Positions 48,247 through 49,923 of a stretch of DNA of 64,000 nucleotides are shown here, one piece after another. The notes beneath the pieces are model-generated. The model saw only the letters and a program-made list of their open reading frames with translations, did not search any database and was not told the DNA's origin. The stretch is from Sphingomonas koreensis (lineage in GTDB: Bacteria; Pseudomonadota; Alphaproteobacteria; Sphingomonadales; Sphingomonadaceae). A program made the position numbers and the translations under genes. The DNA is taken from assembly GCF_002797435.1 (NCBI RefSeq), contig NZ_PGEN01000001.1, forward strand, positions 1,430,501-1,494,500, in the 5' to 3' direction. Numbering within the stretch: the stretch's first letter is position 1; each line of letters starts with the position of its first letter.

Positions 48247-48948
48247 TCAGGCGTGCTGGCGCAGGATTTCGGCCAGCGTCACTTCGCCCAGCATCGCGCC
48301 GCTGCCCGGCGGAGTCTCGCCGAACTCGCGCGCCTGAGCGAAGGCGACCGCGGGATCGGCCATCAGCCGCTCGATCAGCGCCTCGATCTTCGGATAAGCG
48401 CCGGGCTCCACCGCCTGGTGGAATTCACCCCAGCGGGCGACGCCGATGAACACGCCATCGGCCAGCGTCGGACGATCGCCGAGCAGATAGGGCCCGTCGC
48501 CGATCATCTCCTCCAGCCGCGCATGCCGGTCGTTGACCAGCCCGCGTGCGAACTGGCGCAGCGTCGCCTTGTACTCGGGATCGCCCCCTTCCATCTCAAG
48601 CGCCACCCAATAGGGCATGAAGGATCCGGTGAAGCCGGTGTTGATGAAGCCGATCAGCTGATGCATCCGGTCGGCCTGCGCCGTGCCGGGGTCGAAGCTG
48701 ACGCGACGCTCATGATCGCGCGCCTCGATCCAATGGGCGATCGCCATGGTCTCGGTCACCACGCGGCCGTCTTCGGTGATGAACACCGGGGTCTCGCCGC
48801 GCGGATTGAGGCGCAGATATTCGGGCGTCTTCATCTCGCTCAGCATGTCGACGCGGGACAGCCGATAGGGCTGGCCGAGCCATTCGAGCGAGGCGACAAG
48901 CCCCATCGAGCTTCCCAGCGGGAAGCCGTAAAGCAGGGTCGGTTCCAT
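48247..48948 (-). CDS. Glutathione S-transferase family protein
   Basis: A 233-residue GST-like protein. The thioredoxin-like N-terminal domain has LLYGFPLGSSMGLVASLEWLGQPYRLSRV and NPRGETPVFITEDGRVVTET, with a Ser in the catalytic region and the cis-Pro in TPVF. The all-helical C-terminal domain carries LLGDRPTLADGVFIGVARW, including the N-capping Asp. It is divergent from an HxlR-type regulator, which probably controls it; the substrate is not known. Confidence 0.87.
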   Translation of the reverse strand: MEPTLLYGFPLGSSMGLVASLEWLGQPYRLSRVDMLSEMKTPEYLRLNPRGETPVFITEDGRVVTETMAIAHWIEARDHERRVSFDPGTAQADRMHQLIGFINTGFTGSFMPYWVALEMEGGDPEYKATLRQFARGLVNDRHARLEEMIGDGPYLLGDRPTLADGVFIGVARWGEFHQAVEPGAYPKIEALIERLMADPAVAFAQAREFGETPPGSGAMLGEVTLAEILRQHA

Positions 48949-48974
48949 GATGTTCTCCGTGATCTTTGGGGGAT

Positions 48975-49025
48975 CACCGCGCGGTGTGACTGGCATTTAG
49001 GGACGTGCGCGCCCAAGTAAATTAC
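48975..49025. promoter_or_regulatory. Palindromes in the GST/HxlR divergent region
   Basis: CACCGC (48975-48980) abuts its complement GCGGTG (48981-48986), and GTAAATTAC (49017-49025) is a perfect 9-bp palindrome. Both lie in the 113-bp gap between the divergent gst and hxlR genes. HxlR-family dimers bind short A/T-rich palindromes in such gaps, so GTAAATTAC is the better candidate operator; the G+C palindrome is in the gst leader. Confidence 0.4.
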
Positions 49026-49061
49026 GCACAAAAATGTCACTTCTGGAGTGGAGCCGAAAAA

Positions 49062-49400
49062 ATGCAGGACGTGGTGTCGAACTGCCCGATCGAGGATGCG
49101 ATGCGCGTGCTGAGCGGCCGCTGGGCGACGTTGCTGCTCTATTATCTCAAGGACGGGCCGAAGCGCTTCAGCGAGCTGCAGCGCGACAACCCCAGCATCT
49201 CGCATCGCATCCTGACGCTCGAGCTGCGCAAGCTCGAGGAGGCCGGGCTGGTCGCGCGCACCGCCTATGAAGGCTTTCCGCTGCGCGTCGAATACAGCCT
49301 GAGCGCGCCGGGTGCCGAGTTGATGCCACTGATCGATGCGCTCGGCGACTGGTGGGCGGTCTCCTTCCCCCGTCGAAGGGAGCGCCGCGACGCGGCGTAG
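49062..49400 (+). CDS. HxlR-family transcriptional regulator
   Basis: A 112-residue winged-helix regulator with the family core CPIEDAMRVLSGRWATLLLYYLKDGPKRFSELQR, ISHRILTLELRKLEEAGLV and TAYEGFPLRVEYSLSAPG. The single N-terminal Cys (SNCPIED) matches the redox- or aldehyde-sensing Cys of many members. The ATG at 49062 has a GGAG 8 bp upstream and gives a normal length; the GTG at 49005 would add an odd leader and overlap the putative operator. Probably represses or activates the divergent gst gene and itself. Confidence 0.9.
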   Translation: MQDVVSNCPIEDAMRVLSGRWATLLLYYLKDGPKRFSELQRDNPSISHRILTLELRKLEEAGLVARTAYEGFPLRVEYSLSAPGAELMPLIDALGDWWAVSFPRRRERRDAA

Positions 49401-49433: not shown

Positions 49434-49487
49434 TATCCTCCCCCGCCAGGGGGAGGTGGCATGCGAAGCATGACGGAGGGGGAGGAC
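49434..49487. repeat. Left inverted repeat of the DUF559 unit
   Basis: A 54-base element starting TATCCTCCCCCG; the inner palindrome CCTCCCCC-GCCA-GGGGGAGG is followed by CATGC-GAA-GCATG. The reverse complement of 49871-49922 matches it over nearly the full length, with a few differences around the second hairpin. It ends 4 bp before the DUF559 start codon. Confidence 0.8.
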
Positions 49488-49491
49488 GACA

Positions 49492-49923
49492 ATGCGCCTC
49501 AAGGGCACGGAACGCGGCCACCGCAACGCAAAGCGCCTCCGCGGGGAGATGACCCCGCCTGAGATCGCCCTGTGGCTGGCGCTGCGCGACAACGCCGCAG
49601 GTCTCCGGTTCCGCAGGCAGCATGCCGCCGGAAACTACGTCCTAGATTTCTACTGCGCGCCCGCGCGACTGGCGATCGAAGTCGACGGCGAATCGCATGA
49701 GCGGGGCGATCGCCCGCGGAACGACGCGATGCGCGACACCTGGCTCATATCGCGCGGCGTACGGGTGATGCGCTATCCGGCCCGCGAAGTGCTCGGCAAC
49801 CTTGAGGGCGTCATGCGGCACATCCTGGCACTCGCAATAGAGCGGCGGGACAATATCATGGCGGATCGCCGTCCGCCCCCTCCGTCACCTTCGGCGCCAC
49901 CTCCCCCTGGCGGGGGAGGATAA
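49492..49923 (+). CDS. DUF559-family protein, predicted PD-(D/E)XK-like endonuclease fold
   Basis: A 143-residue protein. RLRGEMTPPEIALWLALRDN, LRFRRQHAAGNYVLDFYCAPARLAIEVDGESHERGDRPR and GVRVMRYPAREVL are the DUF559 pattern, with the D in VLDFYC, the E of IEVDG and the following Asp as likely metal ligands, as in Vsr-related nucleases. The gene begins 4 bp after one inverted repeat and its Pro/Gly-rich C-terminus and TAA stop are encoded within the other (49871-49922), so the reading frame and the repeat are physically joined. A solitary nuclease gene with its own flanking repeats suggests a mobile or selfish unit. Its biochemical role is unknown. Confidence 0.88.
   Translation: MRLKGTERGHRNAKRLRGEMTPPEIALWLALRDNAAGLRFRRQHAAGNYVLDFYCAPARLAIEVDGESHERGDRPRNDAMRDTWLISRGVRVMRYPAREVLGNLEGVMRHILALAIERRDNIMADRRPPPPSPSAPPPPGGGG
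49871..49922. repeat. Right inverted repeat of the DUF559 unit
   Basis: A 52-base element in reverse orientation to the left copy, ending GGGGGAGGATA. It carries the same GGGGGAGG-type hairpin. It overlaps the last 17 codons and most of the stop codon of the DUF559 gene. No clear target-site duplication flanks the pair. Confidence 0.8.

What the first reader, a model, noticed from the sequence alone, without database searches (positions are those of the whole stretch)
49434..49923. DUF559 nuclease-like gene bounded by nested inverted repeats
Two about 52-54-base repeats in opposite orientation flank a DUF559 gene. The left ends 4 bp before the start codon. The right contains the last 17 codons and the TAA. 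Both contain a CCTCCCCC-GCCA-GGGGGAGG hairpin. A reading frame joined to its own terminal repeats resembles the REP/RAYT arrangement and MITE-like units, but with a PD-(D/E)XK-type protein instead of a tyrosine transposase. It may be a selfish element moved or copied with help from this nuclease, or a nuclease that acts on these repeats. The repeats and ORF relation are directly seen; mobility is inference.
Basis: partly seen in the sequence, partly recalled or inferred. Interest (0 to 1): 0.8.

Follow-up and report, generated by a model that had tools for sequence, protein, structure and literature searches.

The report
Nuclease gene with REP-like mobile ends
A small bacterial nuclease gene sits inside its own pair of palindromic repeats, relatives of it in several bacterial phyla do too, and in Sphingomonas genomes the number of such repeats rises with the number of these genes, which suggests an undescribed repeat-spreading mobile system without a known transposase.

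Summary
49434-49922 is a discrete 489-bp unit: two inverted REP-like repeats around a DUF559 nuclease ORF. The same geometry is found at 30 of 30 testable Sphingomonas loci (the window's and the best-scoring 29; only 7 site groups) and at 54 of 78 loci from other bacteria, against 0 of 30 PIN-gene loci and 1 of 411 shifted windows. ORF-less inverted pairs with the same ends (REPIN-like, commonest 122 bp) occur in trans. Hairpin number follows DUF559 gene count in 151 genomes (Spearman 0.61; contrasts on an 88-genome one-gene tree r 0.65-0.69), PIN genes only weakly (0.20), and RAYT-type Y1 transposases are missing from 135 of 151. Repeat class tracks nuclease subfamily, with exceptions (17 of 121 genomes). 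Ends are precise; no target-site duplication was seen. The nearest folds are NGO0050 and the EDxHD homing nuclease I-Bth0305I. Best reading: a REPIN/RAYT-like system whose element-encoded enzyme is a Vsr/EDxHD-type nuclease. Association is shown; mobilisation by the nuclease is inferred (about 0.7), by cutting plus host repair (about 0.4).

The parts
49434..49487 (+). left REP-like repeat (class A); the conserved end reads ATCCTCC from 49435
   Evidence: the same end in 16 homologous elements from other genomes
49437..49456 (+). left proximal hairpin, 8-bp stem, 4-nt loop
   Evidence: sequence; alternative DNA folds
49475..49485 (+). distal G-rich arm of the left repeat (GGAGGGGGAGG), 6 nt before ATG, placed like a Shine-Dalgarno sequence
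   Evidence: pattern with a 5-6 nt spacer matched in 16 of 17 class-A elements (the 17th differs by one base and has the same spacing); the DNA fold of the + strand pairs it with the C-rich arm, the RNA folds do not
49492..49923 (+). DUF559 nuclease ORF, 143 aa; DUF559 match at residues 10-113; the last residues are a proline/glycine tail encoded by the right repeat
   Evidence: dN/dS of the family
49869..49922 (-). right REP-like repeat, inverted
49900..49919 (-). right proximal hairpin
   Evidence: sequence, fold

Best explanation
49434-49922 is the nuclease-bearing member of a REPIN-like family of mobile repeats. The DUF559 protein (Vsr/EDxHD-type nuclease fold) recognises and cuts the hairpin-forming REP ends of its own class, both at its own gene and at ORF-less inverted pairs of about 122 bp (REPINs), and the freed or broken DNA is copied or captured at new places by host repair, without target-site duplication. 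The nuclease gene itself moves rarely and is mostly inherited vertically, while REPINs multiply in trans. Shown: anatomy, discreteness, conservation, class matching, copy-number correlation, absence of Y1 transposases in most genomes. Inferred: cutting of REPs, mobilisation, and the repair route.
For: Discrete unit: 16 homologous elements (73-76% identity) begin at the same bases and end at the same bases but for one; same-side flanks are alike only within three groups, which leaves 10 distinct places with the window's own. Flank repeats at 30 of 30 loci vs 0 of 30 PIN loci, 54 of 78 elsewhere, 1 of 411 shifted windows. ORF-less units with the same ends: 20 REPINs, commonest length 122 bp, beside 18 gene-bearing units of 483-507 bp. 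Hairpins 20,526 in 151 genomes vs 582 for the reversed pattern; medians 8 (no DUF559, n=10), 34 (one gene, n=16), 129 (two or more, n=125); Spearman 0.61, 0.58 after removing two hairpins per gene, PIN genes 0.20. Contrasts on an 88-genome TauE tree r=0.69, signs 66:16; corrected 0.65 vs 0.20 for PIN. Class-A hairpins: median 64.5 in 30 genomes with a class-A nuclease (>=147 bits), 0 in 121 without. Protein similarity vs repeat similarity, Mantel r=0.54, p=2e-4, 33 non-redundant loci. Y1_Tnp in 16 of 151 genomes, not in the window's; two genomes with a strong Y1_Tnp and no DUF559 (G006, G062) have 16 and 6 hairpins. Nuclease under purifying selection, median dN/dS 0.17 over 64 of 105 pairs. 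Nuclease fold.
Against: No cutting or movement was observed. 17 of 121 genomes without a class-A nuclease of >=147 bits have >=10 class-A hairpins (G092 281, G091 128, G097 116; G018, 33, holds a broken copy), and 6 of 30 carriers have fewer than 10 (G108 2, the window's genome 3, G125 4). G136 lacks DUF559 but has 64 hairpins (88% complete). Class-A hairpins also rise with the number of other DUF559 genes (contrast r 0.33). The independent-pairs test on DUF559 presence had 5 pairs and no power (about 2.5 same, 0 opposite). The reversed-pattern control correlates weakly too (0.25), and the PIN contrast signs are 52:30. The 30 genus loci are only 7 site groups. Of four polymorphic sites one is a tidy REPIN presence/absence, and that one carries 14 extra bases; another involves 11-12-nt direct repeats, so precise insertion is not proven. 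24 of 78 homologues elsewhere lack the repeats. By established knowledge (recalled) a hydrolytic nuclease alone does not join strands.
Confidence: 0.68

Rival explanations
1. DUF559 is a host repair or defence nuclease (Vsr-like), and the flanking repeats are ordinary expression signals or terminators, or a landing hotspot, that happen to be kept.
For: Sources often name such proteins very-short-patch-repair endonucleases; C. crescentus VsrA, a DUF559 protein, is functionally tied to a cytosine methyltransferase (PMC12907096, passages). The left repeat supplies a Shine-Dalgarno-like arm. Long residence: 17 of 30 loci at one site.
Against: Repeat copies occur as gene-free units with the same ends; repeat class follows nuclease subfamily; repeat number follows nuclease number; the whole unit recurs at 10 distinct sites.
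Confidence: 0.15
2. A free-standing homing endonuclease: it cuts an empty allelic target and is copied in by recombination; the repeats are only its arms or its target.
For: Foldseek ranks 2 and 3 are the catalytic domain of homing endonuclease I-Bth0305I; a Thermosynechococcus paper assigns a DUF559 gene to the EDxHD homing family (PMC9403480, passages); 26 of 30 loci share three sites.
Against: Elements and REPINs lie at many unrelated sites with only a weak YRA preference outside the end; homing does not explain large numbers of ORF-less copies.
Confidence: 0.1
3. The repeats are RAYT-type REPs mobilised by tyrosine (HUH) transposases, and DUF559 genes are passengers in them.
For: Same overall plan as REPtrons: hairpin repeats inverted around a gene, inverted pairs in trans (plan of REPtrons from PMC3733652 passages).
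Against: Y1_Tnp found in 16 of 151 genomes, not in the window's; no GTAG consensus at the ends profiled; repeat counts follow DUF559; G006 and G062 have a strong Y1_Tnp, no DUF559 and few hairpins.
Confidence: 0.05
4. Chance or artefact of GC-rich composition.
For: The genomes look GC-rich, and C/G-rich hairpins form easily; the reversed-pattern control is not zero.
Against: Reversed pattern 582 vs 20,526; shifted windows 1 of 411; 0 of 30 PIN loci.
Confidence: 0.01

Closest known systems
REPIN / RAYT (REPtron) systems
   Same: Hairpin repeats in inverted pairs, a gene flanked by its own repeats, few gene copies and many copies in trans, class matching, no target-site duplication seen (features of RAYT systems partly from PMC3733652 passages, partly recalled).
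   Different: The enzyme is a DUF559 nuclease, not an HUH tyrosine transposase; no GTAG tag; each repeat is a hairpin plus a second G-rich arm.
EDxHD homing endonuclease I-Bth0305I (PDB 3r3p)
   Same: Same nuclease fold: TM-score 0.81-0.82 by target length, 0.57-0.58 by query length.
   Different: The window's protein has 143 aa only, is not in an intron as far as seen, and has scattered gene-free repeat copies.
Vsr mismatch endonuclease and C. crescentus VsrA
   Same: Family name and, weakly, fold (1vsr, E 0.11); VsrA has a DUF559 domain (PMC12907096 passages).
   Different: Bound to repeats; no methyltransferase among the neighbouring genes that I named by Pfam.
MITEs with an IS transposase
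   Same: Short gene-free derivatives that share ends with a longer gene-bearing element.
   Different: No transposase family hit in the ORF, no target-site duplication detected.

Membership tests
RAYT/REPtron | HUH Y1 transposase gene between the repeats | tested here: not met
   the gene is DUF559; PF01797 has no match in the window's genome
RAYT/REPtron | GTAG (or CGTC) tag at the foot of the repeat | tested here: not met
   base composition outside the ends of 20 REPINs and 18 elements: (Y)(R)A before TCCTCC, no GTAG consensus
REPIN-like repeat (structural sense) | two hairpin repeats in inverted orientation as a short dispersed unit | tested here: met
   20 units, commonest 122 bp; L004:1500-1623 folds with z -7.8
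IS/MITE | target-site duplication | tested here: not met
   flank matches of 2-9 nt at 16 offset pairs not clearly above re-paired flanks, 20 REPINs and 18 elements, some of them at shared sites
IS/MITE | transposase (DDE, serine or tyrosine) in the element | tested here: not met
   Pfam finds DUF559 and, below its cut-off, MTES_1575 REase
Homing endonuclease (EDxHD) | EDxHD/Vsr-like catalytic fold | tested here: met
   Foldseek 3r3p E about 1e-4, 3hrl E 4e-5; the catalytic residues were not mapped
Homing endonuclease (EDxHD) | insertion at its own recognition site in an allele | tested here: inconclusive
   shared sites exist but class A also lies at 10 distinct sites; no cutting assay
DUF559 (PF04480) | profile match above the curated cut-off | tested here: met
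   94.4 vs 20.6 bits
Active nuclease | DNA cutting | not testable with these tools
   no assay; E24, D52, D65, H69 and D78 invariant and E63 nearly so in 16 proteins, which is only suggestive

The most novel reading that the evidence does not exclude
A widespread bacterial class of mobile repeats, independent of RAYTs and of known transposases, in which a single-domain Vsr/EDxHD-type nuclease is the only element-encoded enzyme; much of the CCCTCTCCC...GGGAGAGGG-type intergenic palindrome load in alphaproteobacteria, planctomycetes and other phyla is the trace of DUF559-driven spread.
Probability: 0.45. Interest if true: 0.95.

Novelty: new variant of a known kind. Interest (0 to 1): 0.85.

Why it matters
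REP/REPIN repeats are common bacterial repeats, and the only partner enzyme for them known to me is the RAYT kind of tyrosine transposase. A second, unrelated enzyme with the same plan would give an origin to large repeat populations in genomes that have no RAYT, a function to a family still called 'domain of unknown function 559', and a test case for how a hydrolytic nuclease without strand-joining activity could spread DNA. It also bears on DUF559 proteins now read as repair enzymes (VsrA). It is directly testable with one purified protein and one cloned repeat.

Tried and rejected
RAYT as driver: rejected on Y1_Tnp distribution. Composition artefact: rejected by reversed-pattern, PIN and shifted-window controls. 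Target-site duplication: looked for, not seen. Riboregulation by sequestering the Shine-Dalgarno-like arm: the DNA fold of one strand allowed it, the RNA folds of three left ends did not, so not claimed. One covariance model for all repeat classes: not built, because hairpin centres differ between classes in alignment A1. Plasmid carriage: two short REP-sized matches in 72,556 records, no whole element. A 200-kb comparison of G133 and G060 for insertion sites failed for lack of synteny (2.9 kb aligned). PADLOC hits are weak (DpdF, mREase_II), so no defence system is claimed. Left repeat against right repeats: the own partner is the best match in only 7 of 33 loci, because class-mates match as well (median 59.9 bits own, 18.9 other).

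Literature: ten searches. No held paper has both 'DUF559' and 'inverted repeat'; 14 hold 'DUF559', of which I saw passages of two (PMC12907096, PMC9403480) and only the listing of the other twelve. Passages also of PMC3733652 and PMC3943268; PMC3116915 only in listings. Taylor 2011 (PMC3239194) is not held. So 'not in print' holds only for this library and these terms. Statements on REPIN/RAYT, IS and homing biochemistry beyond those passages are recalled.

Full report
WHAT IS THERE. The window holds a 143-aa DUF559 ORF (49492-49923; Pfam 94.4 bits) between two inverted repeats: perfect arms 49434-49460 / 49896-49922 and a nested 28-nt pair, together 65 columns at 86%. Each repeat has an 8-bp hairpin (CCTCCCCC-4 nt-GGGGGAGG) followed by a second G-rich arm. 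The left distal arm lies 6 nt before ATG, as a Shine-Dalgarno sequence would; 16 of 17 class-A elements match that pattern and the last differs by one base. The right repeat encodes the proline/glycine tail; in the genus the right repeat begins before the stop codon in 28 of 30 loci. Many class-A proteins stop earlier, at 124 aa, so the tail seems dispensable.

THE GENUS. 141 of 151 same-genus genomes have PF04480; sources name the homologues Sphingomonas. I examined the window's locus and the 30 best-scoring others of a longer list; one of these (L033) lies at a contig edge and was dropped. The other 30 all have an inverted repeat hugging the gene (E<1e-4); 0 of 30 PIN-domain loci from the same genus do (30 of 66 hits in 15 genomes), and 0 of 120 shifted windows in the same DUF559 loci do. 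These 30 fall in 7 site groups: 17 at one site, 6 at a second, 3 at a third, 4 single. In L017 the first site is yqeY-dnaG and in L012 the second is thioesterase-Pyr_redox_2 (lpd by eye) (Pfam). So they are not 30 independent events, but several repeat classes are seen among them.

A DISCRETE UNIT. Fetched with up to 4 kb each side, all 16 start ATCCTCC, and all but one end GGAGGAT (L104 ends GGACC). Same-side flanks are alike only within three groups (2, 2 and 6 genomes), which leaves 9 distinct places, 10 with the window's own. In the group of six, left flanks are 95-98% alike while the first ~400-700 bp on the right often differ; unexplained.

GENE-FREE COPIES. The window's genome has a 122-bp inverted pair without ORF at C1:3368224-3368345 and few other copies. 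In fetched stretches I collected 20 REPINs (core length 103-132, commonest 122) and 18 gene-bearing units (483-507); some are the same site in related genomes. Outside the end there is a weak YRA preference; direct repeats of 2-9 nt at 16 offset combinations are not clearly commoner than in re-paired flanks, so no target-site duplication was detected. A whole REPIN folds into one long hairpin as DNA, z -7.8.

COPY NUMBER. The class-neutral pattern CCTCYCN{6,9}GRGAGG gives 20,526 hairpins in 151 genomes (median 110) against 582 for the pattern read backwards. Medians: 8 (10 genomes without DUF559; 3 to 64), 34 (16 with one), 129 (125 with more). Spearman 0.61 with DUF559 count; the backwards control also correlates weakly, 0.25. 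After subtracting two hairpins per gene 0.58; PIN gene count 0.20. On a tree of the neighbouring TauE gene for 88 of the 151 genomes (7 of the 10 without DUF559; about 20 more listed coordinates were not fetched) contrasts give r 0.69 (66 same sign, 16 opposite), corrected 0.65; PIN 0.20 (p 0.056; signs 52:30, p 0.02). The independent-pairs test of presence/absence had 5 pairs and no power; for >=3 genes it had 15 pairs, about 8 same, 0.5 opposite, median p 0.02. TauE is one gene and may have its own history.

CLASS MATCHING. Class-A hairpins: median 64.5 in 30 genomes with a nuclease scoring >=147 bits to the window's (60-100% identity), 0 in 121 without (with the own two removed 62.5 vs 0); contrasts r 0.48, but the number of other DUF559 genes also shows r 0.33. 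24 of 30 against 17 of 121 have >=10 (one search lists them). The 17 exceptions need lost nucleases or cross-use; G018, with 33, holds a broken class-A gene that I counted as absent. Protein and repeat similarities correlate (Mantel 0.69 over 46 loci; 0.54 over 33 non-redundant).

OTHER PHYLA. In a rerun in which full windows had to fit, 53 of 76, against 1 of 291 in shifted windows. By the records' own names positives include Pseudomonadota, Planctomycetota (4), Bacillota (3), Bacteroidota (2), Chloroflexota (2) and one locus each of Nitrospirota, Cyanobacteriota, Ignavibacteriota, Myxococcota and Ca. Moraniibacteriota; many are metagenome bins, and the cyanobacterial and ignavibacterial repeats are short and lie further out. 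The label needs 15 changes on a poorly resolved tree. Hairpins were counted in 50 of these genomes, chosen by me (33 of the 54 positive, 17 of the 24 negative): 9.3 and 3.4 per Mb, p 0.004; at least five times control in 23 of 33 and 5 of 17. Differences in GC content are not corrected for.

SITES. At the window's site, between a cytochrome b561 gene and tauE (Pfam), 16 relatives: 14 no such repeat, G050 a REPIN, G111 a remnant; the window's genome additionally has GST and HxlR genes there. Four polymorphic sites among close genomes: one tidy REPIN presence/absence with 14 extra bases on one side, one where 11-12-nt direct repeats border a longer insert, two less clear.

ENZYME. AlphaFold model mean pLDDT 89. 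Foldseek: 3hrl (NGO0050), 3r3p (I-Bth0305I catalytic domain), then, much weaker, Vsr. Median dN/dS 0.17 over the domain (64 of 105 pairs measurable, 15 of 17 sequences; the other two copies are broken), so the protein is kept for a function.

HOW IT MOST LIKELY WORKS. The plan is that of REPIN/RAYT, with another enzyme. A nuclease of this fold is expected to hydrolyse DNA and not to join ends, so I propose that it cuts REP hairpins (extruded cruciform or lagging-strand hairpin) and that host repair copies or captures the unit elsewhere; lack of duplications and untidy junctions fit, but do not prove, this. Probability of nuclease-dependent spread 0.7; of this particular route 0.4.

STATUS. It fails defining tests of RAYT systems and of IS/MITEs, meets the fold test of EDxHD nucleases, and is REPIN-like in structure. 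Hence new variant of a known kind, with a new enzyme class for repeat mobility as the bold reading.

Noticed in passing
L013, L014, L016-L018, L020-L023, L025, L026, L028-L030, L032, L038, L039: 17 of 30 DUF559 loci examined sit at one conserved site (yqeY-[DUF559]-dnaG in L017, Pfam; grouping by flank similarity); 6 more share a thioesterase-lpd-like site. Long-lived residence between core genes.
   Followed up: partly
L104, L108, L109, L110, L114, L116, right of the element: Left flanks 95-98% identical, yet the first ~400-700 bp right of the element are often unrelated between these close genomes.
   Followed up: partly
window 48247-49400: A GST and an HxlR-type gene lie between the cytochrome b561 gene and tauE in the window's genome; in the 16 relatives looked at the two are neighbours.
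   Followed up: partly
G018 (L198), L105, L110: Broken class-A DUF559 genes; G018 still holds 33 class-A hairpins, as if repeats outlive the nuclease.
   Followed up: partly
G006, G062: Strong Y1_Tnp (RAYT-like) gene, no DUF559 and few hairpins (16 and 6).
   Followed up: no
G082:C1:246490-246575: Three REP hairpins in a tandem row every 34 bp.
   Followed up: no
G024/G060 versus G057/G034, site 3: A REPIN-bearing insert bordered by 11-12-nt direct repeats, absent as a unit in two close genomes: precise loss or gain.
   Followed up: partly
Caulobacter crescentus CCNA_02930 (paper PMC12907096, passages): VsrA, a DUF559 protein on which SOS induction depends when a cytosine methyltransferase is missing, may belong to this family; its flanks were not seen.
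   Followed up: no
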